From: a virus
IMG/VR virus record: IMGVR_UViG_3300005748_000015
Span: 1 to 64,000 of that record
Length of the DNA stretch: 64,000 nt
Reading direction: 5' to 3' (one strand)
Under the pieces are notes generated by a model. The model saw only the letters and a program-made list of their open reading frames with translations, had not been told where the DNA came from and ran no database searches. Shown here piece after piece: positions 1 to 18,964 of the stretch (positions are counted from its first letter, which is position 1; every line of letters starts with the position of its first letter). The position numbers and the translations under genes were made by a program.

Positions 1-573
1 GTAAAAAATATATATGTAAAAATTACACAGTGAGCTTGCAATAAAAAAATATTCTGTTATATGAGACAAGACAAACATTTTTTATTTAACAGCCTTATAT
101 AACAGAAAAAAAATATAATGCAATGGAGAGTGTAAAATTTACAGGGGTAAAAGAAAAAATCGTGTCAAGAAAAATCGACAGAAAAAATGCCATCGTGAAA
201 ATATTACACACTAAAACATGAAATTGTCTAAAATATTGACAGCTCAGATTGCCCTCAGAACGCTTTAAAAAAGTTTTAAAGGTCATTGTAAGCGTAAAAA
301 TAAAATGCTTCAGAACAAAGATTTGAAGCTCTCAGGACTATGAAGATAATTTATTTAGGGTATTTTGCTATGGAGAAATTTCACACCACGAAAAACATTT
401 CTTGACACGCTCTTTTTTGGAGAGTCAAGAAAAAAATGAAAAAAATGATCTTTTTTAACCAAGACAAGAAAAAACTATGTAAATATTACCGATTGTAAAA
501 TTTACTCTTTTTGTTGCGTTGAACGGATTTTTTTAGTAGAATTTATGGGTAACATTCACTTGAAGGATTTTTT
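1..573. other. Non-coding left region with operator-like palindromes
   Basis: No convincing gene is seen. A minus-strand reading frame at 95-286 has no ribosome site and is biased only by AT content. The stretch holds five TGTAA-N3-TTACA-like palindromes (15-27, 131-143, 196-208 with one mismatch, 478-490, 494-506) and a promoter for the first gene at 514-542. The left end is a window edge, so an upstream gene could begin or end beyond it. Confidence 0.6.
514..542 (+). promoter_or_regulatory. Sigma70-type promoter for the HExxH gene
   Basis: A TTGCGT -35 box (514-519) and TAGAAT -10 box (537-542) are separated by 17 bases. They lie 31 bases upstream of the start codon at 574. Two TGTAA-N3-TTACA palindromes lie immediately upstream at 478-490 and 494-506, where a regulator could act. 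Confidence 0.5.
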
Positions 574-954
574 ATGGCTATTGCAAAAAAATTGAAAAAC
601 AAAAAAATGAACGATGCAACTTTTGAACTTAGAAAGCAAGTAATGAAAATTTTATACGATATCAAAAAAGTTGTTGACCTACCACGCATCACAGTAAGAA
701 TAACGGAAAACAAAGGCAATACGCTAGGACTTGCTAGGATGGGCGAAAATGCAATATGGATACCCGAAAGGATGTTTACAGGTAACGATAAACTTTATTT
801 ATACGAGGTTATTTGTCATGAGCTAGTTCATGCGGTTTTGAATATTGGGCATGATGAAAGATGTCCCTTGATGCGTTCCCATATTGGTCAAAGGGCGTTG
901 ACAAGGGATCAATGCAATTTTATTTTAAAAACATATTGGAATAAAACAAGGTAA
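574..954 (+). CDS. SprT-like HExxH metallopeptidase
   Basis: A 126-residue protein with a zinc metallopeptidase signature: H82-E83-x-x-H86, followed by H93 a short distance away as a possible third ligand. The helix carrying the motif is preceded by a beta-rich stretch ending in an aromatic segment, as in small SprT/WLM-like metallopeptidases. A basic, lysine-rich first 30 residues could bind nucleic acid. Start chosen at 574 because an AAGGA ribosome site lies eight bases upstream, in a leader shared with the next two genes. It is the first of three unrelated HExxH proteins in this window. Family placement is by motif only; substrate unknown. Confidence 0.7.
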   Translation: MAIAKKLKNKKMNDATFELRKQVMKILYDIKKVVDLPRITVRITENKGNTLGLARMGENAIWIPERMFTGNDKLYLYEVICHELVHAVLNIGHDERCPLMRSHIGQRALTRDQCNFILKTYWNKTR

Positions 955-960
955 AAATTA

Positions 961-984
961 CAGGGTATATTTTAATATGCCCTG
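961..984 (+). terminator. Hairpin after the HExxH gene
   Basis: An eight-base stem (CAGGGTAT with ATGCCCTG, one G-U pair) around an AT loop follows the stop codon by seven bases. It lacks a T-run, so it may be a weak terminator or an mRNA-stabilising hairpin. It overlaps the palindrome at 950-962. Confidence 0.35.
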
Positions 985-1029
985 ACTTGCATTAGAATAC
1001 TAGAGAGACATTAACACAGGAGATTTTTT

Positions 1030-1227
1030 ATGAGAATTTATTTGTACACACCAATTTTTAAAGAGGGCGTAGAACTAGACGGGCAACTTGTTTACGGAAA
1101 AAACGAAAAGGAAGGTCTAATTGAAATGAGAAAATTTTTCGATGATGATGAACTAGAGGGCGTTGAGGTCTTAGGTTGGACTACTGAGGACGACCCTGAC
1201 TATCAAGACTATATCGAACTCAGTTAA
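1030..1227 (+). CDS. Small acidic protein, unknown function
   Basis: A 65-residue strongly acidic protein, with a C-terminal half rich in Asp and Glu. No known domain is recognised. The start has a strong AGGAG ribosome site nine bases upstream within the leader AGGAGATTTTTTATG, identical in the next gene. It is followed by a classic terminator, so it may be a stand-alone early transcript. Small acidic early phage proteins are often host-protein inhibitors or DNA mimics, but nothing here shows that directly. Confidence 0.75.
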   Translation: MRIYLYTPIFKEGVELDGQLVYGKNEKEGLIEMRKFFDDDELEGVEVLGWTTEDDPDYQDYIELS

Positions 1228-1240
1228 ACAAAAAAGATTT

Positions 1241-1265
1241 AGGGGCATGATGCCCCTTTTTCCTT
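1241..1265 (+). terminator. Rho-independent terminator
   Basis: A seven-base perfect stem (AGGGGCA with TGCCCCT) around TGA is followed by a T-rich tract. It ends the transcript of the acidic protein gene. Confidence 0.85.
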
Positions 1266-1327
1266 TTTCCTAACTTATATAACACAAAAAAAATACATTG
1301 GAATAGCTATGGTAAAATTTACACACT

Positions 1328-1357
1328 ATATATTTTTTACATACCATATTGCAATAC
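1328..1357 (+). repeat. 30-bp direct repeat, copy 1
   Basis: A perfect 30-base match to 1773-1802. It contains the -35 TTGCAA of the promoter for the gene at 1421. Confidence 0.85.
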
Positions 1358-1376
1358 TTGCAAAAATCATTATAAT
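1349..1376 (+). promoter_or_regulatory. Sigma70-type promoter for the 1421 gene
   Basis: TTGCAA (1349-1354) and a consensus TATAAT (1371-1376) are separated by 16 bases. They lie 45 bases upstream of the start codon, with a palindromic operator-like site at 1311-1323 just upstream. The -35 part lies in a 30-base repeat duplicated at 1773. Confidence 0.7.
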
Positions 1377-1420
1377 GATTGTATAAGCAATTAAGCTTAT
1401 GCACATTCAGGAGATTTTTT

Positions 1421-1714
1421 ATGACTAAAACACAATTCAGAAGCCTTTACTCAGAGTACCGCAAAGCACAATTTAACTTTGAATCATATATGAGTGAAAG
1501 AAATTTCCCATGTGGTCACGATGATATGTTATACGAGCGTTTCGAGGCATCTACTCAAGAGTGGCTTGAAAAGCACCCTGAACTAAAAAATATCATAGAT
1601 GGAATTTATGACTGGGATTTTTTACAAGAAAGGGCACAAAGTTTTAATGCTTTTGGTTCACGTCCCAAAAGTTTAAAAATTGAGCTGCGCAGGAAATATC
1701 CTAAAATAGCTTAA
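1421..1714 (+). CDS. Conserved-looking small protein, unknown function
   Basis: A 97-residue charged, aromatic-rich soluble protein with no recognised domain. The start at 1421 is preferred over an in-frame upstream TTG (1379) because the AGGAGATTTTTTATG leader, shared with the gene at 1030, precedes it exactly. It has its own consensus promoter and its own terminator, so it is a single-gene transcript, typical of an early phage gene. Confidence 0.75.
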   Translation: MTKTQFRSLYSEYRKAQFNFESYMSERNFPCGHDDMLYERFEASTQEWLEKHPELKNIIDGIYDWDFLQERAQSFNAFGSRPKSLKIELRRKYPKIA

Positions 1715-1722
1715 CTTGTCAA

Positions 1723-1757
1723 TGCCCTATGTAATTATTACATGGGGCTTTTTTTTG
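1723..1757 (+). terminator. Rho-independent terminator
   Basis: An eleven-base stem with one G-U pair (GCCCTATGTAA with TTACATGGGGC) around a TTA loop, followed by eight T residues. It ends the 1421 transcript. The stem also contains a TGTAA-N3-TTACA palindrome. Confidence 0.85.
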
Positions 1758-1772
1758 CATAAAATCAAAACC

Positions 1773-1802
1773 ATATATTTTTTACATACCATATTGCAAT
1801 AC
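1773..1802 (+). repeat. 30-bp direct repeat, copy 2
   Basis: A perfect copy of 1328-1357. Like the first copy, it supplies a TTGCAA -35 element, here followed by TATATA. There is no gene downstream on this strand. Confidence 0.85.
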
Positions 1803-1821
1803 ATTTTTTATCTGTTATATA
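1794..1821 (+). promoter_or_regulatory. Duplicated promoter-like element without a gene
   Basis: TTGCAA (1794-1799), 16 bases, then TATATA (1816-1821), in the same geometry as the promoter at 1349. It reads into ORF-free DNA and could drive a non-coding RNA or be a decayed duplicate. Confidence 0.4.
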
Positions 1822-2410
1822 CACACCATAAAATAAAAACTATTTATAAATCAATCACCATATATTTCATAAAATAAAAACTATATGTTTTTTGCACCAC
1901 TTACAGCACCCTTTTCTATATAGGGAACTGACAGCCTCTCACAGCCTCTCACAGCCGCCGCACCGATGCCCTACCCTACCCATTGCCCTACCGCTTGGAA
2001 CGTCTTAGACGCTAAATATGGACATGGTTTTCTACAGCCTTTACTGATGGGGCTTCACAGCGTTGCACCCTATAACCTAGTGAAATCACGACAAGGTTTT
2101 TTACAGGTGTGTAAGTTTTACACTGGGTATTGACAGGGGGGAGAGTCAAGCACAAAGAACGCACCGTGTAACTTTTACAGGGCTAGGGCTAGGGCATATA
2201 ACAGATAAGTTTTAAAAATCAAGTAAGGTTTATAAAATTTACATAGGGATAGGTCTTTTTCAAAGTTGGCACACCCCTTGCATACACATGCAAATCTGAT
2301 GCCAAAACCGGGGTTTAGGGACTCCTAAATTTTTTTTAGATAACTATACCCGAAATATCCTGAGCCTCATTTTTCGTTTTTGCAAAAACAACTTCCTAAT
2401 TTCAAAAACT

Positions 2411-2778: not shown

Positions 2779-2865
2779 TTAATAAGTTTCATCCAGCTCT
2801 TCCTCCCAAGCTCTAAAAGACACACACCTATCACCAGTTAGTCTGAGCACCCTTTTCTTTTCCAT
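2779..2865 (-). CDS. Possible 28-residue protein
   Basis: A short reading frame starting inside the end of the 2831 gene and stopping next to the ribosome site of the 2539 gene. Its charged, coding-like composition and position between two coupled genes argue for it; the weak ribosome site argues against. Not recognised. Confidence 0.35.
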   Translation of the reverse strand: MEKKRVLRLTGDRCVSFRAWEEELDETY

Positions 2866-3238
2866 AGAGTCTGCAACCCCAATACGTCATGCGTTCCTTG
2901 TCAAAGTGCTTGCTATAATGTTTGTTGCTTTTCATAAGCGACACACACGCATCTTCAAAGCTTTTTCCCCAAGCTGTGCCTAAAAAAGTATCCCTAGTCC
3001 ATTTGCCTTCAGTTTCGTTTGCACAGTAGCCTTCTGACCATATCTCGTACTCAGTCAGTCCAGCCTGTGCCTGTGCTGACAATTTTTTCTTATATATTAA
3101 TTGTGTCTCCATAACAGTTTGTGCAACATAACGCAGCATTTCAGCTTGCTGCTTAGTAAGCTTGCCATTAGTCATGCCACGAACTATCTCTGAAGCTATA
3201 TGTTTAATTTCTTTTTTTAACTGCTTATCATTTGTCAT
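2831..3238 (-). CDS. Hypothetical protein, 135 aa
   Basis: A soluble protein with a helical, Lys/Gln-rich first half and a C-terminal half rich in Trp, Tyr and Cys. No family recognised. The start at 3238 (AAAGGTGAG six bases upstream) is preferred over a longer in-frame version. Its ATG overlaps the stop of the preceding membrane protein gene as ATGA, indicating translational coupling. Confidence 0.7.
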   Translation of the reverse strand: MTNDKQLKKEIKHIASEIVRGMTNGKLTKQQAEMLRYVAQTVMETQLIYKKKLSAQAQAGLTEYEIWSEGYCANETEGKWTRDTFLGTAWGKSFEDACVSLMKSNKHYSKHFDKERMTYWGCRLYGKEKGAQTNW

Positions 3239-7327: not shown

Positions 7328-9169
7328 ATGGCTTACACCTACAATATAGGAAAAAACACAGAAGATTCTCATCAGACATCTCCAGCCTATGTTTTAACTT
7401 TTACTAGATGGTCAAATAGAGATACTTTAAATTACAAAGACGTAGGAGGGCTAAATACTAGAAATCCATTAGTTGTAGTTAACGATGCAATTGCTATACA
7501 AGTAAGTTCTCAAAAAGATAATCCTCAACACAATTTTTCATGCACTTTAAAACAAGGAGATTTAAATTATTTAACAGCTGTACATCCAGGTGATTACGTT
7601 ATTGTAAACATGGTAAATAATGAACAAAAAGCTATGGAAATAAGATCAAGAGCATTAAAAGGAAAAGCTATTAACAAAATAGATGATGGATTTAAAGGTT
7701 TGTTTAAAATAGCAGATGTTAGAATGCAGCTTGCAACAACATCCGATGGTTTAAAACAATACGCTGTAAGTGTTACAGGTAGGGCTTTTGATGAATTTAA
7801 TAACAACCTATATTTTAATCCTGCATTTAATAATGCTGATAATAACAGTTTTATAGATAACAATTTTGAAAACTGGAGAGATTTGTTATTGTCAAAAGAA
7901 CAAAGCAATGTTCAAAATCTAATTAAAGAAGCTATTAAAAGAACTATTGGATTAGGAGCAAAAGTTTTAGACAAAGATCGCCCAAAACTTAAATTGAACC
8001 AGATACCTGTTTATAAAGTTCCTGGTATAATATCAAATTTATTAAACATGAAAACAGATAAAGACCCTTATATGTCAAAAATTAATCATTATTATTTGGG
8101 ATTATGGAGTTTTACAGGTAAAACAGCAGGAACTGGAGCATCTTTAGAAAAAGGTTTTACAAATTTTTTCGATGAAGATGCGGTTGAAAAAAATAAAAAA
8201 AAGAAAAAAGAAACAGGAGAAGATAAAAATACAAATTGGTATAAAACTAGTATTAAACTTTCTGGCACTAGACAGATAACATTAGAAGATTTTTCAAACA
8301 CAAATGTTTGGAGTATAATAAAAGATTACTCCAACCCACTTATAAATGAAGTTTATACTTGTTTTAGAGTATGTAAAGATGGATATGTTTACCCATCCTT
8401 TGTGGCCAGACAAAAACCTTTTAATACAAGACATTACAAGGAAAACCCATACGCAATAAGCCACACTCAGTTTTTGGACATGCCTAGATGGAAAATATCT
8501 CCAGATATAATTTACAATCTTAGTCTAGGAAGAAGTGATGCTGCAAGAATTAATTTTGTACAAATATTTACAAGAAATTTAGCGGTAAACGATAATTATA
8601 ATCAGGCTACACAAATATCAATGGGAAATTTTGTACAAGATAAAGAGGATATACAAAGAAATGGTAGAAAACCATACATAAAAAGTTGTAACTATGACTA
8701 CCCATTAGATGGAACAGAAGAACCAGAATATTTAGGTAAAAAATATGCTGAATTGGTAGCAGATTGGGTTATGAATGGCCATTTAAAGATGAACGGAAGT
8801 ATTGCGTGTGCTGGTATTGTTGAGCCAATATGTATTGGGGATAATTTAGAGTTTGATAGAGTTGTATATCAAATAGAATCAGTATCCCATAATATGACTA
8901 TAGATGGAAAAGGTGGAAAAAGATTTACTACGAGTGTTAGCTTGTCTATGGGTATTAGTGAAAAATCTACAAAAACAGTTCCAGTATATGCGGAAATGGA
9001 TCACACTGACTCATTTACAAAAAGAAAAGAAGACTATCAAAGAGAAAGGGTGTTACCAGGTTTTTCAGATACTCAAGATTTACCAAGCAGGGAGAAAGGT
9101 GAAGAGGTTAAAGAAACTAGACAGGCAACATTTACAAATCCAGACAATACAGATAAAGGTAAAAAATAG
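7328..9169 (+). CDS. Baseplate hub protein (gpD / gp27-like)
   Basis: A 613-residue beta-rich protein. The C-terminal part (about residues 480-560) has the gpD-type pattern: a low-complexity turn, a 'GDNLEF...YQIESV.H' segment and a terminal strand. This is known from hub proteins that sit between tail tube and spike. A Lys-rich loop (about residues 280-295) looks like a surface insertion. It begins two bases after the tape-measure gene and is followed by the spike gene, the standard tail order. Function is inferred from order and pattern, not strong sequence identity. Confidence 0.65.
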   Translation: MAYTYNIGKNTEDSHQTSPAYVLTFTRWSNRDTLNYKDVGGLNTRNPLVVVNDAIAIQVSSQKDNPQHNFSCTLKQGDLNYLTAVHPGDYVIVNMVNNEQKAMEIRSRALKGKAINKIDDGFKGLFKIADVRMQLATTSDGLKQYAVSVTGRAFDEFNNNLYFNPAFNNADNNSFIDNNFENWRDLLLSKEQSNVQNLIKEAIKRTIGLGAKVLDKDRPKLKLNQIPVYKVPGIISNLLNMKTDKDPYMSKINHYYLGLWSFTGKTAGTGASLEKGFTNFFDEDAVEKNKKKKKETGEDKNTNWYKTSIKLSGTRQITLEDFSNTNVWSIIKDYSNPLINEVYTCFRVCKDGYVYPSFVARQKPFNTRHYKENPYAISHTQFLDMPRWKISPDIIYNLSLGRSDAARINFVQIFTRNLAVNDNYNQATQISMGNFVQDKEDIQRNGRKPYIKSCNYDYPLDGTEEPEYLGKKYAELVADWVMNGHLKMNGSIACAGIVEPICIGDNLEFDRVVYQIESVSHNMTIDGKGGKRFTTSVSLSMGISEKSTKTVPVYAEMDHTDSFTKRKEDYQRERVLPGFSDTQDLPSREKGEEVKETRQATFTNPDNTDKGKK

Positions 9170-9177
9170 GAGAATTT

Positions 9178-10233
9178 ATGACATTTAAAACTGGTTATGT
9201 ACCACCAACAGGGCTTTTGTCTAAAGTAGAAAAAAAAGCTGTAAGTTCTTTTAATAAAAAATACAAAAATACACCGCTTAGAATGGGCTGTATTACAAGA
9301 GTTTATGAAATTGACGATGAAAATAATACATCAAAAGGAACAGCCGTTCAATATGACGTTATAACTGAAGAACAAAGGGAAGATAAGGGTAACAACTATC
9401 CGACTTATCCAAGATGTATCGCTTTAGATGGTATCGGTGGTATCGGTGATTTTTTTGAATATAAACTTAGAACTTCTGATAGTGAACAATTTGAAAAGAC
9501 ACATCAATTTAAAAAACAAAATGGAAGTTTAGTTTTGGTACTTTGTTTAGATGGTTTTTCTGAAAAGGGTATAATTATTGGTGGATTCAAGCATCCTGCT
9601 AGAGAAACTAAACTAACAAAAGATGCTGGATTACATCTCGAAGGCGAATATAATGGTCTTAACTGGCAAATAAACAAAGACGGTGAATTAACCATTACTT
9701 TTAAATCAAAAACAGACAATGATGGAAAACCACAAGATGAAACTGCTGGTGGTACAACTGTAAAAATGGATAAAGAAGGTTCTATCGACATCAATACAAA
9801 TCTTGAAGGCGATGAAGAAACCTATATGAGAATGGACAAGAAAAACAAAGACATAGGACTAAAAGCTGGGGCTAATGTAGGATTTACCGCTAAAAAAGAT
9901 GTAGCAATGAATGCTGAAGGTAAAATTACTGGAAAAGCCAAGGCCAATGTTGAACTTGTTGCTGAAGGTGCAGCTAAAATATCGGCAAAATCTAGTCTTG
10001 ATCTTGAAGGTGAAAGTGTTGTCAATATTAAAACTGACAATTTAGAAATAAATGCATCAAAAATATTTACTTTTGCATCTGAAACTTTTTTGGGTGGGAA
10101 AGTTTACGTTGGTGATGGAGGTGAACCAGCAGTTATTCGACAAACTCAGTTTAAAGGAAAGGGAAACCACGGTGCTCCTGTTATATCAACAGCACTTGGG
10201 CCTTTTAGTAGTTCGGTATTTATAGCGTCATAA
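9178..10233 (+). CDS. Baseplate spike protein (gpV / gp5-like)
   Basis: A 351-residue protein. The N-terminal half contains an OB-like, glycine-rich domain with 'GIGGIGDFFEYK' and 'GFKHPARE' type motifs. The second half (about residues 200-320) has short alternating strands of the VxLxAxxxxxIxAxxxLxLxG type, expected of a trimeric beta-helix spike. It follows the hub gene with an AGGAG ribosome site. It is the membrane-piercing tip of the contractile tail by family knowledge. No lysozyme domain is present. Confidence 0.75.
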   Translation: MTFKTGYVPPTGLLSKVEKKAVSSFNKKYKNTPLRMGCITRVYEIDDENNTSKGTAVQYDVITEEQREDKGNNYPTYPRCIALDGIGGIGDFFEYKLRTSDSEQFEKTHQFKKQNGSLVLVLCLDGFSEKGIIIGGFKHPARETKLTKDAGLHLEGEYNGLNWQINKDGELTITFKSKTDNDGKPQDETAGGTTVKMDKEGSIDINTNLEGDEETYMRMDKKNKDIGLKAGANVGFTAKKDVAMNAEGKITGKAKANVELVAEGAAKISAKSSLDLEGESVVNIKTDNLEINASKIFTFASETFLGGKVYVGDGGEPAVIRQTQFKGKGNHGAPVISTALGPFSSSVFIAS

Positions 10234-10460
10234 TGTACAACATTATACTAGATGCCCTTATTGATGACATGCAAAGCTTTGGGATAATATCCACTATTAT
10301 AATATCCGAGGATTATTACGAGCAAATGTCATCTAAAGAAATCAATCATTTAGATAGTTTTCTTACTGACGGAATGAAGTGGATGATAGTAAATGATAGA
10401 AAGGAGTATTGGTCTTTTATATATTCATATGAGCCATTTGAGTTTGAAGATGAACAATAG
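10233..10460 (+). CDS. Hypothetical protein, 75 aa
   Basis: An acidic, Ile/Asp-rich small protein. Its ATG overlaps the spike stop as TAATG, so it is translated with the baseplate genes. Nothing else is recognised. Candidate roles are spike chaperone or regulator, by position only. Confidence 0.6.
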   Translation: MYNIILDALIDDMQSFGIISTIIISEDYYEQMSSKEINHLDSFLTDGMKWMIVNDRKEYWSFIYSYEPFEFEDEQ

Positions 10461-10683
10461 ACAAATATTATTTGAAATAAAATGTAAAGCTTGCAAAAAA
10501 CTTTTTTTGTATCACCCTAGACAGGGGCAAGATTTTAGATGTTATAATTGCAGAAAAGGTGCAACTTTAGAAGAGGTTGAAAAAGAGTTAGCAGAAATGT
10601 CCAAAGAAGAATACGACTCTTTTATGCAAGATATAGAAGAATATAAAGAAGAATTAAAAAAGAAAAAAGAAAATAAAAAATAA
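10450..10683 (+). CDS. Small zinc-ribbon protein with coiled-coil tail
   Basis: A 77-residue protein. CxxC at about residues 11-14 and a second CxxC at about 30-33 form a zinc ribbon; the rest is a Glu/Lys-rich helix. The start at 10450 is preferred because longer versions run deep into the upstream gene. The ribosome site is weak and coupling to the upstream gene is likely. Function unknown. Confidence 0.6.
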   Translation: MNNRQILFEIKCKACKKLFLYHPRQGQDFRCYNCRKGATLEEVEKELAEMSKEEYDSFMQDIEEYKEELKKKKENKK

Positions 10684-10686
10684 TGT

Positions 10687-10698
10687 GTGATATTATAT
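10687..10698 (+). promoter_or_regulatory. Phage promoter (GATATTATAT)
   Basis: GTGATATTATAT immediately after the zinc-ribbon gene. It directs a leader of roughly 75 bases that contains a full terminator before the next start codon. Confidence 0.6.
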
Positions 10699-10745
10699 AT
10701 ATGAGGTTAGTTTTTTAAGGGCATTACCTCCGCATTTATGTCCAG

Positions 10746-10766
10746 GCCCTCTTCGGAGGGCTTTTT
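10746..10766 (+). terminator. UUCG-loop terminator in a leader
   Basis: GCCCTC-TTCG-GAGGGC followed by five T residues is a textbook intrinsic terminator. It lies between the promoter at 10687 and the start codon at 10780, so it can attenuate the downstream genes. Upstream segments GAGGT (10703-10707) and AGGGC (10718-10722) could pair alternatively with ACCTC (10726-10730) and the GCCCT arm. Confidence 0.8.
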
Positions 10767-10779
10767 ATTAGGATTTTTT

Positions 10780-11055
10780 ATGTATGACAAGTTTGTAAAG
10801 ATAAAACAAGAAAAACCGTGGCTATTTTGGTTGCTTATAGTGCCTTTTGTTTTTGTTGTTATTGTAGATTTCTACAATAAATACCTTATAAATAGTGGAA
10901 AACAGGCAATAAAAAATGCAGAAAAAAAAGACGTAAAATTAAAAACAAAACAAGACAAAACAGAGGCTTTGTCAGAATATCATGAGCAAAAAGCAGATGA
11001 TATTGAAGATCAAATAAAAAATATTGAAACCGAAAAGGATTGGCATTTAAAATGA
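10780..11055 (+). CDS. Membrane-anchored coiled-coil protein
   Basis: A 91-residue protein with one transmembrane helix (about residues 14-31) and a long, highly charged coiled-coil tail. This is the shape of an inner-membrane spanin or a small envelope protein. A lipoprotein partner could be the 53-residue product at 12936, but they are not adjacent. The start at 10780 has an AGGA ribosome site; a longer frame from 10738 would include the terminator hairpin and is rejected. It is coupled to the next gene by ATGA. Confidence 0.6.
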   Translation: MYDKFVKIKQEKPWLFWLLIVPFVFVVIVDFYNKYLINSGKQAIKNAEKKDVKLKTKQDKTEALSEYHEQKADDIEDQIKNIETEKDWHLK

Positions 11056-11561
11056 TGAGCACAGGAATTTTTTTATATTATTCATATTTATTTTTATCTA
11101 TTTTTATTTTAATATATGCTTTTGTAAAAGACAGACAGCAATTTTCAATACATTGGGACGGAATTTCTAAATTTGTAGCTTTTATGTCTTTTGTCACGAT
11201 GGTTAGATTGTGCATTATGACTTCTGGCCCTATTCGTCAAAATTTTCCGTTTGAAATGTTTGATTTTGTATTTGTTGTATTTGAAGATATGTTTTTTGTA
11301 ATGATACCATATTATATTGCCAAAAAGCTAAACAATTCATTTTTAAAGTTTATTGTATGGATTTGTTTTTCTTCTTTATTTGCATATGGACATGTTTATC
11401 AGGGATATTTTGCAGCTTTAATTACAGCCTTTTATCCTTACTTTATATCTAGAAAATATGCTATGAAAACAAGTTTTGTTACTGTAATGATGTGTCATTT
11501 TATGTATGACTGTATAACTTTTGTTACCGTTAAATTTGCTAAAATACTACACTATTTGTAG
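11052..11561 (+). CDS. CPBP-like intramembrane metalloprotease homologue
   Basis: A 169-residue polytopic membrane protein with about five hydrophobic segments. Three conserved-looking sites fit the CPBP/Abi (CAAX-protease) pattern: E78-D79 in a membrane helix, F110-x3-H114 and H149-x3-D153. The family's first motif is usually EExxxR; here it is ED and the Arg is missing, so activity is uncertain. Known CPBP proteins include prenyl-protein peptidases and bacteriocin immunity proteins. It overlaps the upstream gene as ATGA. An alternative is an unrelated membrane protein with chance His positions. Confidence 0.45.
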   Translation: MMSTGIFLYYSYLFLSIFILIYAFVKDRQQFSIHWDGISKFVAFMSFVTMVRLCIMTSGPIRQNFPFEMFDFVFVVFEDMFFVMIPYYIAKKLNNSFLKFIVWICFSSLFAYGHVYQGYFAALITAFYPYFISRKYAMKTSFVTVMMCHFMYDCITFVTVKFAKILHYL

Positions 11562-11589
11562 TTCTTTTAATTTACACCAGCACAGACAT

Positions 11590-11601
11590 GTGATACTATA
11601 T
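11590..11601 (+). promoter_or_regulatory. Phage promoter variant (GTGATACTATAT)
   Basis: One base different from the common GTGATATTATAT. It lies 27 bases upstream of the 11628 start and begins the small-gene operon 11628-13766. Confidence 0.55.
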
Positions 11602-11627
11602 TGGTGTACCAACGCTAAGAGGTTTTG

Positions 11628-11858
11628 ATGTGTAAAAAACAAGACAAATGGGAAAGATGGAATAAGCTAATGATTGAAGAAAAATACATAGTGATTATTA
11701 AAGAGTTTGATGATATGATTAGAAAAAAAGAAATGATAACTGTTGGAGATTTGGTAATTAGAGATCAAGCTTTAGAAGAAATGGGAGTAATTTCTTTGAG
11801 TCCAAATGCAATTTATAATAGGAAAAATAACAATGGAAAAACTAAAAAAAGAAAATGA
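11628..11858 (+). CDS. Hypothetical protein, 76 aa
   Basis: A basic, helical small protein with no recognised domain. The ATG at 11628 has an AAGAGG ribosome site; a TTG three bases earlier is ignored. First gene after a phage promoter; its 3' end overlaps the next gene. Confidence 0.65.
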   Translation: MCKKQDKWERWNKLMIEEKYIVIIKEFDDMIRKKEMITVGDLVIRDQALEEMGVISLSPNAIYNRKNNNGKTKKRK

Positions 11859-12024
11859 AAAACTTAAATTAGAACTAGCCACCATAATTATGGGTTATGA
11901 AACAGAGTTGGCCAAGGAAAGAAGAGAAGAAATATCTAGTTTTTCACAAGGATGTATGAAAAGATACTTTCAGTTAATGGAAGAGTTAAATGGAGAAGAA
12001 AATGCTTCAAATAAACAAAATTAA
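11833..12024 (+). CDS. Small coiled-coil protein
   Basis: A 63-residue protein with a heptad-like Leu/Lys/Glu first half. The start at 11833 is preceded by AGGAAAAA; the longer frame from 11806 lacks a ribosome site. It overlaps both neighbours. Unknown function. Confidence 0.6.
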   Translation: MEKLKKENEKLKLELATIIMGYETELAKERREEISSFSQGCMKRYFQLMEELNGEENASNKQN

Positions 12025-12193
12025 ATTTGATAAAGAAACGCAAACCGAAGAAATTGTTTCTTTAAATATACCAAGTGATGAAGTTGCTTGTCTTTATAAG
12101 GACGGTAGGGGTGTTTTTTTAATAACAAAACAAGGATTTATGCACAAAGTAGCGTATGAAATGGAATATTTAATAAGGTTATTAGGTATATAA
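12002..12193 (+). CDS. Hypothetical protein, 63 aa
   Basis: A small protein with an acidic first half and a hydrophobic end; no domain recognised. The start at 12002 is preferred because TGGAGAAG lies just upstream, inside the end of the previous gene. Confidence 0.6.
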   Translation: MLQINKIKFDKETQTEEIVSLNIPSDEVACLYKDGRGVFLITKQGFMHKVAYEMEYLIRLLGI

Positions 12194-12194
12194 T

Positions 12195-12605
12195 ATGAAT
12201 TGTAAGTTCAAATATGGAGATAGAGTTTGGGCAGGAAATCATGCAGGAAAAATAATTTCTATAAGAAAATATAACTATAACTATATTTGCAAAGTTAAAT
12301 TTGAAAATAGATTTTTAGTTCCGCAAGAAATGGAGTACAAAGAAAGCGAGTTGGAATTAATAAAGGAATCAAAAACTGAAACTAGCAATAATAAACCAAA
12401 GTGTACGTGTGGAATAGAAAAAACTTATGGAAAAATACCGACAGAAAATCACAAGTATTATTGTGATCTTTTGAATCCTGAAAAAGAAGACAAAAAAGAA
12501 GACAAAAAAGAAGACAAAAAAGATAGTGAATTATTAGAACAATTTGAGTTAATGTTAGAAGGATATTATGACGATGATGACGATGATTTTGGATTTTTTG
12601 ATTAA
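12195..12605 (+). CDS. Cys/His-motif protein with acidic tail
   Basis: A 136-residue protein. The N-terminal ~55 residues look like a small SH3-like beta domain. Residues about 69-91 hold a CxCG...YGKxP...HxxYCDL motif with four potential zinc ligands (three Cys, one His). Three tandem Lys-Glu-Asp-Lys repeats (12-base DNA repeats near 12484-12520) and a run of six Asp follow. The Cys/His motif recurs in the minus gene at 30136, so the two are domain paralogues. Function unknown; metal binding is inferred. Confidence 0.65.
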   Translation: MNCKFKYGDRVWAGNHAGKIISIRKYNYNYICKVKFENRFLVPQEMEYKESELELIKESKTETSNNKPKCTCGIEKTYGKIPTENHKYYCDLLNPEKEDKKEDKKEDKKDSELLEQFELMLEGYYDDDDDDFGFFD

Positions 12606-12608
12606 TTT

Positions 12609-12917
12609 ATGACTTTTAATGAATACGAAACAGATTGGCTAGTTTTTAGAAAAAAAATTGAAGAAAAAGCTAAAGGCCGCTGTGTAATTAATAATAAGAA
12701 TTGGAGAAAGCTAAGAGACTATCATTTTGAAGAATGTGTAAAGACAGTGCCTAATCCATACGGTTTTGTTTTTAAAATGGTAAAATTGCACAAAATATAC
12801 AGGTTTGTACCCTGTGCTTATAAGGTTTATTATAAGTATAGAAAGAAAAAACAAGTAGAACTAGAAGCGGCTTTTAGGACTAAATCTAGAGCCGATGCTT
12901 TTAAAAAATATAGGTAA
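12609..12917 (+). CDS. Basic hypothetical protein, 102 aa
   Basis: A Lys/Arg/Tyr-rich soluble protein, possibly nucleic-acid binding. No family recognised. It begins three bases after the previous gene, with a weak ribosome site, as expected inside a tight operon. Confidence 0.6.
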   Translation: MTFNEYETDWLVFRKKIEEKAKGRCVINNKNWRKLRDYHFEECVKTVPNPYGFVFKMVKLHKIYRFVPCAYKVYYKYRKKKQVELEAAFRTKSRADAFKKYR

Positions 12918-12935
12918 AACTAATAGGAGCTTTAA

Positions 12936-13097
12936 ATGGTTAAATTATTTTTTATTACAAGTCTAATGATTTTAACTAGTTGCGCAACAACTTGTGACGG
13001 ATTAAAAATTGCAAAAGAAAGAAGAGCATGTTACAATGATATGAGAAAAAACCAAGAAAGAGTAATAATGGATAGGGATTTGTTTTTAGGTAGATAA
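12936..13097 (+). CDS. 53-residue lipoprotein
   Basis: A signal peptide (about residues 1-15) ends in the lipobox LTSC, with a mature charged peptide containing two further cysteines. AGGAG lies upstream. Lipoproteins this short occur as outer-membrane spanins in phages; a coiled-coil membrane partner exists at 10780 but is not adjacent. Host-surface modification or superinfection exclusion are other options. The lipobox implies a host with lipoprotein processing. Confidence 0.7.
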   Translation: MVKLFFITSLMILTSCATTCDGLKIAKERRACYNDMRKNQERVIMDRDLFLGR

Positions 13098-13115
13098 GTA
13101 GTAAGATAAAAGGTT

Positions 13116-13766
13116 ATGGAAAAAATGCAAAAACATACAGAGTTTGAGACTAAATATCGTTTAGAAGGCGATAAGGTGTTTGAGTTTAAGCAATTGGTGG
13201 AATCTATTGGTGAGCCATATGATTTTGTTTATGTACAAGGGCCGGATTGGTATTACACAAAACCTGACGGTTCTTTTCTAAGATATAGAAGAGCTGAAAA
13301 TGACAAAAGCAATAGAGCAGAACTTACAATGAAAAACAAGCCAGAAGGTGCTGGTCATAATATCATTAGAAAAGAAGTAAATCTTAGAGTAGATAAAAAT
13401 AAATTTTGTACGGTTGAAGAGTTTGCCAAAATGCTAGGGTATGACTTTAACTTTAAAATATGGAAAATGTGCCATATATACAACTTTAAAGATGCAACAT
13501 TGGTTTTTTATACCGTTAGAGATGATAAGGGCTTAATGACTCACTTTGTTGAGATTGAACTTGATGAGGATAGCATACACAAAATTACCAAAGATGAGGC
13601 CTGGGATGTTATTAGAAAATATGAAAGAGTATTAGCTCCTATCGGTATAACCCATAGGCATAGGCTGAATAAAAGTTTGTATGAGATGTATGTTAAAGAT
13701 ATTTACAATAATAAGCCAGAACCTAATGATTTCGATGGTTTAAATGTAGAAGTCATCAATAGGTAA
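13116..13766 (+). CDS. CYTH-domain (triphosphate tunnel) protein
   Basis: A 216-residue protein with the ExExK signature at residues 9-13 (E9, E11, K13), the hallmark of CYTH/triphosphate tunnel metalloenzymes. Alternating basic and acidic strands follow: an LRYRR strand, an LTMKNK strand, an RKE strand, a VEIEL strand and a late HRHR segment. Known members hydrolyse tripolyphosphate or thiamine triphosphate, or act as class IV adenylate cyclases. Length fits the family. Substrate cannot be told from sequence. It closes the small-gene operon and lies next to a virion gene. Confidence 0.75.
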   Translation: MEKMQKHTEFETKYRLEGDKVFEFKQLVESIGEPYDFVYVQGPDWYYTKPDGSFLRYRRAENDKSNRAELTMKNKPEGAGHNIIRKEVNLRVDKNKFCTVEEFAKMLGYDFNFKIWKMCHIYNFKDATLVFYTVRDDKGLMTHFVEIELDEDSIHKITKDEAWDVIRKYERVLAPIGITHRHRLNKSLYEMYVKDIYNNKPEPNDFDGLNVEVINR

Positions 13767-13806
13767 AAACATAACAGGGTGTAATCTTTAAATAAAAAGG
13801 TAAAAT

Positions 13807-15267
13807 ATGGCTTTAAGCAAAGAAGACAGGATTACAATGTCAAAAAAAATCGTGACAATTCCCGATGACAATGCTGTTGTTGAAGTTATTAAAAAACAAG
13901 TTTTAGCCCAGCAAAAAGTAGCCATAGAGAATGACAATGTAAATGCAGCATTGCAAGAGCCTTATAATCAAAAAATAAACTCTTATCAACCTGAATACAA
14001 TTTAATTGATGGCAAAAAAAGAACAATATTAACAGAAAATTTAATAAATGCTGCTGCAAAAGGTGAAAATAGAAACGGCTTTTTTCTTGCAGACCCTGAG
14101 TTTCCTATACCATCAGTTCCAGACGGAGTTTGGAAGTTTTTTGCTCCCATGAGTTTTTGTTACGCCATTGGTAAGAAAAATAACGAACAATATGATGCAG
14201 AACCGCTTGGAGAAATACAAACTTTAAATAGAATTAAGCCTATATTAAAACAAATAGAAGGCTTTATAGATGCCACCAGAGCAAGCGGTAAAAAGTGTTC
14301 TCAAGAAGGTGTTTGTCAAGGTGGCAGCGGCTCAACTCAACAAGAATGTTTGAGTAATGGCGGTACGTGGACTTTGCAAGATGTAATCGTAGATAGTCCT
14401 GAAATACAATCTAAACTAAATGATCTTAAAAGTGAGATACAAACATGGACCAACTCTTTAAATGGTCAAAAATCAAATATACAAATTTCAGACTTAGATG
14501 TTGCAGCTAGACAGGCTGAAAATCAGGCTGCTTACGATTATATTGGTCCATTATTAGACATATTAAAAGCATGGCAACAAATACAAGATTTTGATACAGA
14601 AACTAATCTACCAGAATCATGTGAAGCTTTTGAAAATGCTGGATATCGTGAGTATTGTTCCGAGCCTCAGTATGAAGATCAATTTTCCTGTGTATTTAAT
14701 GGAGGATTTTGGTATACATCTTTTAAAGATTCTAAGTTATCTCCAACACAAATATCAATTTTAAAAAAAGCTGTTGAAGAAAGGGAACCTTTTTTAAATC
14801 AAAGAAAAAGACAATTAGACGGATATTTTGGAGAAGTTATTCAAAACAAAGAAACTGGTGAGATTACAAAAACTACTGGATGGTACGGTCAAAGATTTTT
14901 AATTATTGATTCGAGACTTAATTTAATATCTGGATCAGCTAATGGAAAGTTTGGAGCTGAAGATAGTTTAAAATCTCAAGATCAAATTAAATCTAGTAAC
15001 AATACAGCGGCAGCAGCTTATGATTTATCTATGAAAGCCACAAAAGCTGTAGCACCAGGTCTTGATACTCAATACTTAAATGTTCTAGATGCTTCAGCTT
15101 TCAAAGTTGGTGATGAGGTTTATGTGGTAGCTAATGATCAGGAAGAATTATCAGGAACTATATTAGAAAAAGATGGCAATAGAGTCAAATTGAGTTTTAC
15201 AGTTCCAAAAAAATATAACCTTGCAAATTTAACAAGATTATACAAGCTAGTTAGCGATCCTATCTAA
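13807..15267 (+). CDS. Virion-like protein with Cys-GG-W motifs
   Basis: A 486-residue, mostly helical, Gln/Asn-rich protein ending in a small beta domain (about residues 415-486). Two motifs of the form C...C-x3/4-GG-x-W occur near residues 163-190 and 275-300, probably disulfide or loop repeats. Position before the baseplate block and lack of enzyme motifs suggest a structural or baseplate role. Its stop overlaps the convergent minus gene by four bases. No family name is justified. Confidence 0.6.
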   Translation: MALSKEDRITMSKKIVTIPDDNAVVEVIKKQVLAQQKVAIENDNVNAALQEPYNQKINSYQPEYNLIDGKKRTILTENLINAAAKGENRNGFFLADPEFPIPSVPDGVWKFFAPMSFCYAIGKKNNEQYDAEPLGEIQTLNRIKPILKQIEGFIDATRASGKKCSQEGVCQGGSGSTQQECLSNGGTWTLQDVIVDSPEIQSKLNDLKSEIQTWTNSLNGQKSNIQISDLDVAARQAENQAAYDYIGPLLDILKAWQQIQDFDTETNLPESCEAFENAGYREYCSEPQYEDQFSCVFNGGFWYTSFKDSKLSPTQISILKKAVEEREPFLNQRKRQLDGYFGEVIQNKETGEITKTTGWYGQRFLIIDSRLNLISGSANGKFGAEDSLKSQDQIKSSNNTAAAAYDLSMKATKAVAPGLDTQYLNVLDASAFKVGDEVYVVANDQEELSGTILEKDGNRVKLSFTVPKKYNLANLTRLYKLVSDPI

Positions 15268-15809
15268 TTCTTCCATTCTTTTAATTCTTGAATATAATAT
15301 TCGTAATGTTTTTTTCTACAATAATAACTTGTAACATAAGAGTGCATTAGACTAGCAGGGCAACCATCTTTTAAATAGCCTGGTTTCTCTATTAAACCTA
15401 AATAATATCCTATTTCTTCAAAAAAATCTACTATGTTATTTATTTCTTTTTTTCTGTCAGTATGCATTCTATATCTTATGCAATGCTCAAGTTCATGATA
15501 GGCTAAAAATTCTTTAGCTATAGGGTCAAAGGCATAATCTCTATACCACCAATCAGGGTCGATTTCTATTTCAAAATCTCCATTTATTAACCACCAGCAC
15601 TTACCAACCGTTCCTGATTCTAAGTCTTTAAAATTCATAGATAGCCTGTCAAATTTGTATTGGTATTTATCTTCGCCTATGATGTTCCTGTATGACTCTA
15701 TATAAGGTTTAAATACTGGGTCTATCCCTTTTTGTTGTTGTCTTACCCTTGGAAGAGCTGAACATGAATTTAAAAACAAAACAATTCCTAATAAATAAAA
15801 TTTAATCAT
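15264..15809 (-). CDS. HExxH metallopeptidase lipoprotein
   Basis: A 181-residue protein with a signal peptide and lipobox ending at C16 (LNSC), then a soluble domain with H105-E106-x-x-H109, a zinc metallopeptidase motif. Several later cysteines could form disulfides in the periplasm. The ATG at 15809 is used rather than an upstream TTG. Last gene of the small minus operon starting at 16275. It probably acts at the host outer membrane, on peptidoglycan or envelope protein. The family is not identified. Confidence 0.7.
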   Translation of the reverse strand: MIKFYLLGIVLFLNSCSALPRVRQQQKGIDPVFKPYIESYRNIIGEDKYQYKFDRLSMNFKDLESGTVGKCWWLINGDFEIEIDPDWWYRDYAFDPIAKEFLAYHELEHCIRYRMHTDRKKEINNIVDFFEEIGYYLGLIEKPGYLKDGCPASLMHSYVTSYYCRKKHYEYYIQELKEWKN

Positions 15810-15966
15810 GCTTAACAACCCTTTTTATTAATCCGCATTTTTGACATATATATGCTTTTCTTTGAAATTTAAAATTGTGATTGTTCATTACACAAGTATT
15901 GTCTCTAAACCATCTAAGCATTAAATACCAAGCCATACTTAATACAATAAACCCTACAAAATTCAT
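15802..15966 (-). CDS. 54-residue membrane protein with CxxC
   Basis: A hydrophobic N-terminal helix (about residues 3-19) with a polar part carrying C-x2-CG near the end, plus another Cys and His. It could bind metal. It overlaps the metallopeptidase gene and the preceding gene (ATGA), so the three are co-translated. Not recognised. Confidence 0.6.
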   Translation of the reverse strand: MNFVGFIVLSMAWYLMLRWFRDNTCVMNNHNFKFQRKAYICQKCGLIKRVVKHD

Positions 15967-16112
15967 TTTTTACCACCCTCTATTAATTTAAAAGATTTTT
16001 TTAGCTGTTGTTTTTGTATAATCTTTCTTATTTTTAAAAAAACTCTAATGGCACAGGTTATAACCAAACCTACCCAGCTTGTTAGAAAAAATATTAAAAC
16101 AAAATCACTCAT
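15963..16112 (-). CDS. 49-residue membrane protein with basic tail
   Basis: One transmembrane helix (about residues 4-24) and a Lys/Arg/Gln-rich tail. ATGA-type overlaps with both neighbours make it a convincing small gene. Holin-like or accessory to the lipoprotein peptidase is possible, by position only. Confidence 0.6.
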   Translation of the reverse strand: MSDFVLIFFLTSWVGLVITCAIRVFLKIRKIIQKQQLKKSFKLIEGGKK

Positions 16113-16275
16113 TATCTTTTACCATTTTCTTTGTTTCTTCCTTGATCTTTTTTCTATTATAATCTTTTTTTGATTTCATAGTAATAGAAGGTGGTGCCAC
16201 TGGGATGCGTGGTTTTATCTCTTGTTTTTTCTTTTTCCTTTCTAACTTGTTGATTTTACGTTTAGCTTTTCCCAT
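16105..16275 (-). CDS. 56-residue basic protein
   Basis: A very Lys/Arg-rich, Pro-containing peptide with an AAGAGG ribosome site. First gene of the minus operon 16275-15264, downstream of a divergent phage promoter. Possibly nucleic-acid binding; unrecognised. Confidence 0.6.
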   Translation of the reverse strand: MGKAKRKINKLERKKKKQEIKPRIPVAPPSITMKSKKDYNRKKIKEETKKMVKDNE

Positions 16276-16288
16276 ATAAACCTCTTAT

Positions 16289-16300
16289 ATATAATATCAC
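16289..16300 (-). promoter_or_regulatory. Phage promoter for the 16275 operon
   Basis: GTGATATTATAT on the minus strand, 13 bases before the start codon. Divergent from the promoter at 16310. Confidence 0.65.
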
Positions 16301-16309
16301 ATCGGACAG

Positions 16310-16333
16310 AATCTTTAAAGTATGATATTATAT
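16310..16333 (+). promoter_or_regulatory. Phage promoter for the 16370 baseplate gene
   Basis: AATCTTTAAA (16310-16319) and GATATTATAT (16324-16333). A sigma70-like TATAAT (16341-16346) and a TGTAA-N3-TTACA palindrome (16346-16358) follow before the start codon. Confidence 0.7.
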
Positions 16334-16345
16334 AAAATGATATAA

Positions 16346-16358
16346 TGTAAAGATTACA
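16346..16358. promoter_or_regulatory. Isolated TGTAA-N3-TTACA palindrome
   Basis: TGTAAAGATTACA lies between promoter and start codon of the 16370 gene, where a bound protein would block transcription. The only full copy noticed outside the left-end array. Confidence 0.5.
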
Positions 16359-16369
16359 ATAGGATAAGA

Positions 16370-18964
16370 ATGGCTATAGACAATTTTTTCAAAGACATAG
16401 GTGGCAAGTTAGTTGCCAATAAATTTGAAGGTAACGATAATAAGGATCGATCTGGTGGTGATCCGCTTAAAAAGTTTACTGACGAAAATAAGCCTGAAAA
16501 AGAAGCCTTTTTTGCACCTAAAAATATAGAGCCAGAAAGGGCTGCTAGAATATACCCATATAGATTGCTGGTTATAGATGTTAGAGATAGCAAAATAATC
16601 AAAGGTAGTAGTCCTGATAGTTTTTATTTCAATTACAACGAAGAAACTGGTGGTACAAATTTTGTTCAACAAAATTATCTTCAATGGGAGTTTGTATTGC
16701 CAATTACACCTCAGCAGTTAAGTATAACAGATCAGTTTGCAATCAATACAACAGCTACAATGCGTGGTATAGTAGAAGAGCACAATGGTGTAAAATTCAA
16801 AATGATCCAAGCTTCTGGTACAACGGGTATTTTCCCAATTAGAAACTCTTTTGAAGACCCAGACAGTGGTACGGGTCAAAGTTTATTTGGAGGTACTGCC
16901 GAAGCTTTGGGTGGTCTTATAGATGCCGCCAATGCCTTAAGCGGTACAAAGCCTAAACCTACTGTTGGTGTAAACTCTGAAGACCCTAAAAAGAGTAAAA
17001 ATACTGGTTACTATCAGGCTATGTTGTTACAACAATTTCTTGAACAATATGCTATTGCAAAAAAGAAACCTATAAACAAACATTGGAGATTAGTTTTTGA
17101 CTGTCCAAAAATGAATGAATCTTTTATTGTAACACCAATGCAGTACACTGTAACAAAAAGTCAAAGAAGTCCTGGTGAGCATTTGTTTAATATGCAATTT
17201 AAAGCGTGGAAAAGGGTAGATTTAAAAGCCAAAACAACTCCAAGATCAAAAGATATTCAAGTACTTACCCCTAATTTTTTTCAAACATTAAACAATTCAC
17301 TTGATAATGCTAGAAGTTTAATGAGTGCATCTTTAAATGTTATCAAAGCTGTAAGAGCTGACTTTAGAAAACCATTTGATACATTGAGAAAGGTCACATT
17401 GCTTGCTAAAGATTTTGCAGGAATAGGCGTTGCTATTTCTGACTTACCAAATCAAATTGCCAAAGATATTACATCAGCAACACAGAAAAGAACAAGAGAT
17501 TTAGCTTTATCTGTTGGTAGCAACGCTATTAGTGGGGGAGAGGTTAGAAGCCGTGTTGCACAAGATAAAATCAACAAAACATCAGCGTTAATTACAGAAG
17601 AAGGAAACAAAACTGAAGGACAAGATGGAGATGCTATAGAAAGCGGTGAAGGTGGAAAAGAAGCTAGAGATGCTAGAAGAACATCTCCTTTAAATAACGT
17701 CTTTAATGAGCCGGAGGCTAACTTTGATTTTTTTAATTCAATTTCAATAGATGAACTAGACCTTACACCCCAACAAACAGCTGCAATTCAGGATGAAATT
17801 GAGCTTAATTCTTTAATTTCAGTAGAAGAAATAAAAGAATTTGTCAAAGAAACTCAGGGCCTAATATTAGACCTTACTAATAACTTTGGTGCTGGAGATG
17901 ATTTTTTCTCGGAAGTTTTTGGTAGGCCAACACCTAGAAAACGTGCCACACCAATGACAATTGAAGAGTTTGAATTAATAAAAACTCTTGAAGATGCAGT
18001 TTTAAATATGAATATGCTTGTGGCAACTAGAGAGTTTGATGATGTTAGGACGCAAAGTTCTTTAGAATATGTTGGTGGTTTAGCTGAAGAATCTGGCATT
18101 GAATTTGACTCTTCTGCAACTGCAAAGTATTTAGCACCAGTACCCTTTGGTCTTACTATAGAGGAAATATCAGCAAGATACCTTGGTGATCCTGATAGGT
18201 ATAACGAAATCATTACTTTAAACAATTTAAGATCACCATATATAGATGAAGATGGATTTTTCTATGAATTATTATCCAATGGAGATGGTAGACAGTTCAA
18301 TATTGGAGATAATCAAAATTTATTTATAGGGCAAAAAATACAAATATCAAGTAATACAATACCAATGTTTACAAGGAAAATTACAGCAATAGAAAGAATT
18401 ACGGACGATAACTATTTGATTGCAGTAGATGGCTTGAGTAATTTGAACAACTTAACAACAAATGACAACGCTAAAATTAAAGCTTTCTTACCGGGAACTG
18501 TAAATAGTCAAAATCAAATATATATACCATCTGATCAAGCTGTCGATGAAGAGCCTAGAACATTTGATATTCCATTTTTGCAAGGCGATGATTTAACAGG
18601 CCTTTCAAAAGTAGATTGGTTGTTGGATGATAATGGAGATGTTGTTTTAAATTCATTTGGTGAAGCTGCTTTAGCAAATGGTTTAAATAATCTAGTACAA
18701 GCTTTAAAAATGAAAGTGGCAACTCAAAAAGGAAGCCTACTTGCAGATGAAAACTTTGGCCTTGGACTAGTTCCTGGGGTAAATGTTACAGAAATCAATA
18801 TTGAAACAGTATTGGGCGATTTAAGAGATATGGTATTGCAAGATTCTAGATTTGAGGCTGTAGATAAAATTGAAGTCAATCTTTTAGGGTCGGACTTATC
18901 TATTACAATTCAAGCTAGATTAGCTAATGGAAGAGGTATCTTTCCTATTGACTTTACAGTGTAA
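16370..18964 (+). CDS. Baseplate fusion protein: XkdP-like, LysM-like and gp25-like
   Basis: An 864-residue protein. Residues ~60-310 resemble the N-terminal region of XkdP/DNA-circularisation tail proteins. A middle helical, acidic part leads to a LysM-like segment (about residues 588-665). The last ~110 residues have the gp25/IraD-like pattern of a baseplate wedge (a 'KGSLLADENFGLGL' core followed by helix and beta hairpin). In most contractile phages these are separate genes. It precedes the baseplate J gene, as gp25/W does elsewhere. Domain names are by pattern. Confidence 0.6.
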   Translation: MAIDNFFKDIGGKLVANKFEGNDNKDRSGGDPLKKFTDENKPEKEAFFAPKNIEPERAARIYPYRLLVIDVRDSKIIKGSSPDSFYFNYNEETGGTNFVQQNYLQWEFVLPITPQQLSITDQFAINTTATMRGIVEEHNGVKFKMIQASGTTGIFPIRNSFEDPDSGTGQSLFGGTAEALGGLIDAANALSGTKPKPTVGVNSEDPKKSKNTGYYQAMLLQQFLEQYAIAKKKPINKHWRLVFDCPKMNESFIVTPMQYTVTKSQRSPGEHLFNMQFKAWKRVDLKAKTTPRSKDIQVLTPNFFQTLNNSLDNARSLMSASLNVIKAVRADFRKPFDTLRKVTLLAKDFAGIGVAISDLPNQIAKDITSATQKRTRDLALSVGSNAISGGEVRSRVAQDKINKTSALITEEGNKTEGQDGDAIESGEGGKEARDARRTSPLNNVFNEPEANFDFFNSISIDELDLTPQQTAAIQDEIELNSLISVEEIKEFVKETQGLILDLTNNFGAGDDFFSEVFGRPTPRKRATPMTIEEFELIKTLEDAVLNMNMLVATREFDDVRTQSSLEYVGGLAEESGIEFDSSATAKYLAPVPFGLTIEEISARYLGDPDRYNEIITLNNLRSPYIDEDGFFYELLSNGDGRQFNIGDNQNLFIGQKIQISSNTIPMFTRKITAIERITDDNYLIAVDGLSNLNNLTTNDNAKIKAFLPGTVNSQNQIYIPSDQAVDEEPRTFDIPFLQGDDLTGLSKVDWLLDDNGDVVLNSFGEAALANGLNNLVQALKMKVATQKGSLLADENFGLGLVPGVNVTEINIETVLGDLRDMVLQDSRFEAVDKIEVNLLGSDLSITIQARLANGRGIFPIDFTV

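What the first reader, a model, noticed from the sequence alone, without database searches (positions are those of the whole stretch)
15..2243. Array of TGTAA-N3-TTACA palindromes in the left end
About eleven 13-base palindromes with the same half-sites occur in 2.2 kb of DNA, mostly in non-coding DNA next to early promoters, and one more at 16346 beside a baseplate promoter. This looks like operators of a repressor, or iterons of an origin. No candidate regulator gene is seen in the window.
Basis: seen in the sequence. Interest (0 to 1): 0.7.

Follow-up and report, generated by a model that had tools for sequence, protein, structure and literature searches.

The report
Palindrome array at phage early promoters
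Near the left end of this uncultured phage's sequenced genome, the same 13-letter mirror-image DNA word sits at a fixed distance in front of a set of promoter-like sequences, so it is probably where an unknown control protein docks to switch on the first genes of infection.

Summary
The array is real. TGTAA-N3-TTACA with at most one mismatch occurs 11 times in 15-2243, against 0.25 expected and 20 in the other 126 kb of the 128-kb phage record. The exact motif is absent from the collinear relative G003.

It is not a set of origin iterons. Six of the eleven sites, plus two weaker copies, lie 7-8 bp upstream of a -35-like hexamer with a -10-like hexamer 16-17 bp further on. The palindrome centre is 36-37 bp from the first base of the -10 in all eight modules, on both strands, which puts it near -48/-49. 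Three modules directly precede the three left-end genes. Another site (1730) is also the stem of a terminator. The lone sites at 7765, 16346 and 19762 look like chance.

Best reading: sites for a sequence-specific dimeric regulator, more likely an activator than a repressor, acting on host-sigma-70-type early promoters. No such regulator was found in the record; it may be host-encoded or lie in the early region missing from the contig. The only transcription factor family found is a divergent sigma factor (81731-82762), conserved in relatives without the array. No known operator family tested fits.

The parts
15..27 (+). palindrome of module M1, exact (TGTAAAAATTACA); -35 TTGCAA 36-41, extended -10 TGTTATATG (hexamer 58-63)
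131..143 (-). palindrome of module M2, exact; read leftward: -35 TTGCAT 123-118, -10 TATATA 101-96; faces M1
196..208 (.). palindrome, 1 mismatch, no promoter-like pair at 7-8 bp
478..490 (.). palindrome, 1 mismatch, second site upstream of M3
494..506 (+). palindrome of module M3, 1 mismatch; -35 TTGCGT 514-519, -10 TAGAAT 537-542; precedes ORF 574-954
574..954 (+). left-end gene, SprT-like metalloprotease (126 aa)
950..962 (+). palindrome of module M4, 1 mismatch; -35-like TTTTAA 970-975, -10 TAGAAT 993-998; precedes ORF 1030-1227
1030..1227 (+). small acidic ORF, 65 aa, unknown function
1241..1257 (.). terminator-like hairpin found on both strands, behind ORF 1030-1227 and just beyond the predicted start of M5
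1311..1323 (-). palindrome of module M5, 1 mismatch; read leftward: -35-like TTCCAA 1303-1298, -10 TATATA 1281-1276; back to back with M6
1329..1341 (+). degenerate site of module M6 (TATATTTTTTACA; promoter-proximal half kept); -35 TTGCAA 1349-1354, -10 TATAAT 1371-1376; precedes ORF 1421-1714
1421..1714 (+). left-end ORF, 97 aa, unknown function
1730..1742 (.). exact palindrome that is also the upper stem of a terminator hairpin (1724-1748 followed by T8)
1774..1786 (+). degenerate site of module M7; -35 TTGCAA 1794-1799, -10 TATATA 1816-1821
2110..2122 (+). palindrome, exact; TTGACA 7 bp downstream but no -10
2167..2179 (.). palindrome, exact, no promoter-like pair at 7-8 bp
2231..2243 (-). 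palindrome of module M8, 1 mismatch; read leftward: -35 TTGATT 2222-2217, -10 TATATG 2200-2195
2266..2305 (.). two face-to-face sigma-54-like elements, TTGGCACACCCCTTGCA (+, 2266-2282) and TTGGCATCAGATTTGCA (-, 2289-2305); relation to the palindromes unknown

Best explanation
The palindromes are binding sites of a dimeric, sequence-specific transcription regulator, most likely an activator, of the phage's early genes. One dimer sits at about -48/-49, with its promoter-proximal half-site 7-8 bp upstream of a weak -35, and helps host sigma-70-type RNA polymerase at eight promoter modules. Three of them drive the genes at 574, 1030 and 1421. The others fire toward non-coding DNA or toward one another. 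Shown: the sites, their enrichment and the fixed geometry. Inferred: that the modules are promoters, that a protein binds, and that it activates. The protein is unknown, either of the host or encoded in the early region missing from this contig.
For: Enrichment. At a gap of 7 bp 6 of 36 oriented sites have a -35/-10 pair, with 0.32 expected per gap; no other gap from 0 to 60 except 8 (3 sites) has more than 2. The composite module scores 18 or more 10 times in the first 2.3 kb and 4 times in the other 126 kb, and 20 or more 6 times and 0 times. The centre to the first -10 base is 36 or 37 bp in all eight modules although the spacer varies from 16 to 17 (positions). M6 and M7 lose the distal half-site but keep the proximal TTACA, as expected of an activator touching polymerase. 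The -35 hexamers are weak (TTGCAA, TTGCAT, TTGCGT, TTTTAA, TTCCAA, TTGATT). A separate phage contig carries the same geometry before a gene: TGTAAATTTTACA-N7-TTGCAA-N16-TATACT (L033).
Against: No transcription data. Five sites (196, 478, 1730, 2110, 2167) have no full promoter at 7-8 bp. Several modules point away from genes, so their promoter role is doubtful, and part of the shared spacing may come from duplication (M1, M2, M5, M7 and M8 resemble one another). The promoter-like pair was defined after seeing the sequence. Relative G003 has a comparable early region with promoter-like pairs but without the palindrome. No regulator gene was found.
Confidence: 0.5

Rival explanations
1. The sites are operators of a repressor, of the phage or of a related resident phage, that shuts early promoters by sitting beside the -35.
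For: Perfect or near-perfect dyads at nearly all early promoters of the region; several promoters have extra sites (478+494, 1311+1329); the extended -10 TGTTATAT in five modules could work without help.
Against: Operators usually overlap the -35/-10 or the start and vary in position; here the site is always centred 36-37 bp from the -10 and never covers the core. No repressor, integrase or lysogeny gene was found.
Confidence: 0.28
2. Iterons or initiator sites of a replication origin.
For: Long non-coding DNA, many repeats, near a second iteron-like repeat array at about 2410-2520 (GGTACCATA, GGAGTCCC) that has a counterpart in G003.
Against: Irregular spacing, modules on both strands, fixed link to -35/-10 hexamers, one site inside a terminator, exact motif absent from G003.
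Confidence: 0.07
3. Enhancer sites for a sigma-54 activator that serves the sigma-54-like element at 2266-2282; 2110, 2167 and 2231 lie upstream of it at distances typical of such enhancers.
For: Near-perfect sigma-54-like elements in the same region, 12 in G003; the palindrome contains GT-N7-AC, which I recall as the NorR consensus (memory, not tested).
Against: Most sites are tied to sigma-70-like hexamers at a fixed distance, which enhancer proteins do not need; G003 has many sigma-54-like elements and no exact palindromes.
Confidence: 0.05
4. Single-stranded hairpin promoters of an injected N4-type virion RNA polymerase (5-bp stem, 3-base loop).
For: Same stem and loop size at the genome's left end.
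Against: No N4-type RNA polymerase found: the 2815-aa protein matches baseplate wedge proteins and the family scans gave no such polymerase. The loop is not conserved and the hairpin is weak (-1.1 kcal/mol).
Confidence: 0.02

Closest known systems
Phage promoters activated from a fixed upstream dyad (P2 Ogr, lambda CI at PRM; from memory)
   Same: one dyad at a fixed distance upstream of a weak -35, used at several phage promoters
   Different: sequence and spacing differ (P2 Ogr TGT-N12-ACA near -55); here early genes, both strands, unknown protein
Host-takeover module of SPO1-like phages (from memory)
   Same: cluster of small early genes each with its own host-type promoter; the capsid protein is distantly related to SPO1-like phages
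   Different: no palindrome array of this kind is known to me there; here the contig is cut inside the region
Early region of the collinear relative G003
   Same: small + strand genes, promoter-like pairs on both strands, some face to face
   Different: -35/-10 TTGWSN-N17-RTATACT (17 of 17 in the early region), sigma-54-like elements instead of palindromes
TyrR, HexR and NtcA boxes (consensus from memory)
   Same: half-sites similar to TGTAA/TTACA
   Different: their spacings (8, 5 and 6 in this notation) do not occur in the left end

Membership tests
TyrR box (TGTAAA-N6-TTTACA) | half-sites separated as TGTAA-N8-TTACA | tested here: not met
   no match with spacer 8 in the record
NtcA box (GTA-N8-TAC) | TGTAA-N6-TTACA spacing, centred near -41.5 | tested here: not met
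   0 of 4 matches in the left end; centre near -48/-49
P2 Ogr-type activator site | TGT-N12-ACA near -55 | tested here: not met
   the site is TGT-N7-ACA
P2 Ogr-type activator site | zinc-finger activator gene in the phage | tested here: inconclusive
   not among the Pfam families listed, but the A3 list showed 25 of 31 families and the early region is incomplete
N4 virion-RNA-polymerase promoter | giant virion RNA polymerase gene | tested here: not met
   the record may be incomplete
Origin iterons | regularly spaced direct repeats near an initiator gene | tested here: not met
   irregular spacings, modules on both strands
Activator-dependent sigma-70 promoters | dyad at a constant distance from -35/-10 | tested here: met
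   36-37 bp from centre to -10 in eight modules
Activator-dependent sigma-70 promoters | transcription depends on the dyad | not testable with these tools
   needs reporter fusions or RNA mapping

The most novel reading that the evidence does not exclude
An early-region regulon in which one regulator acts from the same -48/-49 dyad on gene promoters and on extra promoters that face each other or fire into the back of terminators, so that the array also serves non-coding transcription; in the relative G003 the same architecture has been rebuilt with other promoter sequences plus a dozen sigma-54-like elements.
Probability: 0.15. Interest if true: 0.65.

Novelty: new variant of a known kind. Interest (0 to 1): 0.42.

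Why it matters
If host-encoded, the regulator would make early expression of a phage depend on a host transcription factor and so on host state; if phage-encoded, it would be a new early activator or repressor. The fixed geometry yields direct, cheap tests. The turnover of cis elements between two collinear phages (palindromes in one, sigma-54-like elements in the other) is a good case for studying how phages rewire early promoters.

Tried and rejected
Searched phages and plasmids for similar DNA: none. Searched IMG/VR for relatives of the SprT-like protein and of ORF 2831-3238: none. Pattern scans of IMG/VR for the module gave 12 and 26 stretches, nearly all apparently chance or unrelated; only L033 looks like a true counterpart, and a 22-base exact piece of M6/M7 gave none. 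The early regions of G008, G009 and G010 have no such array. Rfam: nothing above gathering. The protein at 46017-46520, of a PHROG named 'DNA binding protein', was considered as regulator and dropped: it is about 90% identical in G003, which lacks the palindromes, and is probably the member behind the Pyr_excise-like match (assignment not proven). Host identification failed: two MAG contigs of unlike phyla; the best named relative is Myxococcus phage Mx1, capsid 53% identical. Literature searches found no description of this motif or of sigma-54 elements in a phage early region (the library is partial).

Full report
Observation. The motif TGTAA-N3-TTACA was counted in the whole 128,193-bp virus record in which the window lies. 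With at most one mismatch there are 11 copies in 15-2243 and 20 in the remaining 126 kb; exact copies are 5 and 3. Markov sequences with the dinucleotide content of the region give 0.25 and 0.007. The exact copies at 7765, 16346 and 19762 are isolated; two are in genes, and none shows a good version of the geometry described below.

Anatomy. Reading each site on both strands, a -35-like hexamer recurs 7 or 8 bp downstream and a -10-like hexamer 16 or 17 bp after it. Eight modules were defined: M1 15+, M2 143-, M3 494+, M4 950+, M5 1323-, M6 1329+, M7 1774+, M8 2243-. The gap scan shows 6 pairs at gap 7 and 3 at gap 8 (950 counted in both) against 0.32 expected per gap, and at most 2 at any other gap from 0 to 60; the nominal binomial value, 7e-7 for gap 7, is post hoc because the pair definition was set after seeing the sequence. 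The composite score picks 10 modules in 2.3 kb against 4 in the other 126 kb (the ten include two weaker ones, 1742- and 2110+, that lack a good -10). The palindrome centre lies 36 or 37 bp from the first base of the -10 in all eight. M3, M4 and M6 stand directly before the genes at 574 (SprT-like), 1030 and 1421. M1, M2, M5, M7 and M8 share an extended -10, (C/G)TGTTATAT(A/G), in alignment A6. M1 and M2 face each other over about 30 bp; M5 fires into the back of a two-way terminator. The 1730 palindrome is the stem of the terminator behind ORF 1421-1714.

Relatives. The record is collinear with G003 (129,267 bp). The G003 counterpart of the left end is a stretch of about 13 kb of small + strand genes (4.4-17.4 kb); this record ends inside it, so more of the array is probably missing. 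G003 has no exact palindrome but its own promoter-like class, TTGWSN-N17-RTATACT, 17 of 17 in the early region, on both strands and partly face to face, and 12 TTGGCAY-N5-TTGCA elements, which match the sigma-54 -24/-12 consensus as I know it. So the architecture is shared and the cis elements differ. The best named relative is Myxococcus phage Mx1.

Regulator. Pfam and PHROGs scans of nearly all ORFs gave no repressor, activator or RNA polymerase family (one list showed only 25 of 31 families, and includes one weak winged-helix match, HTH_69 at 0.0012, not followed up). A protein at 81731-82762 is the ortholog of Mx1's putative sigma factor (30% identity); a profile of three orthologs matches SigA chains at 1e-5. 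It is conserved in relatives that lack the palindromes, so it is not a good candidate for the palindrome-binding protein.

Mechanism. A fixed position just upstream of a weak -35, and retention of the promoter-proximal half-site where the dyad is degenerate, fit an activator that touches polymerase (0.5). A repressor beside the -35 remains open (0.28). Origin iterons, sigma-54 enhancers and N4-type hairpin promoters are less likely for the reasons given. All functional steps are inference from sequence.

Novelty. Fixed-site regulation of phage promoters is a known kind; this motif, its use on both strands of an early region and its replacement in a relative have no match among the families I compared or the papers I could search. 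Hence new variant of a known kind, moderate interest.

Noticed in passing
L025 (G003) 8065-17239: Twelve TTGGCAY-N5-TTGCA elements (sigma-54-like), none elsewhere in G003; many lie 12-33 bp downstream of a RTATACT -10 on the same strand. Four more cluster in G008 97.8-102.7 kb, partly inside genes.
   Followed up: partly
2266-2305: Face-to-face pair of sigma-54-like elements; the minus-strand one is conserved with G003 17223-17239 together with the flank CCAAAACCGGGGTTTAGG.
   Followed up: partly
2310-2520: Iteron-like repeats GGTACCATA / GGGTCCC / GGAGTCCC with a counterpart in G003 17240-17425; possible origin or packaging site.
   Followed up: no
L005:17731-18762 (record 81731-82762, -): Divergent sigma-70-family protein, ortholog of Mx1 WNM70309.1, conserved in G001, G003, G004, G005, G007, G008, G009; the match to SigA ends before the chain does, perhaps without region 4.2.
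   Followed up: partly
L025 8259-17116: Promoter-like pairs TTGWSN-N17-RTATACT on both strands, some face to face 50-65 bp apart or pointing at the back of a terminator; purpose unknown.
   Followed up: partly
L033:6689-6734: Single promoter-like module in an otherwise unrelated 10-kb phage contig with the window's palindrome-N7-TTGCAA geometry and the GTCGTGTATACT -10 region of G003.
   Followed up: partly
L006:7488-13232: Terminase large subunit matches are spread over two ORFs that also hold a LAGLIDADG homing endonuclease match and a GroEL-like part; gene structure unclear.
   Followed up: no
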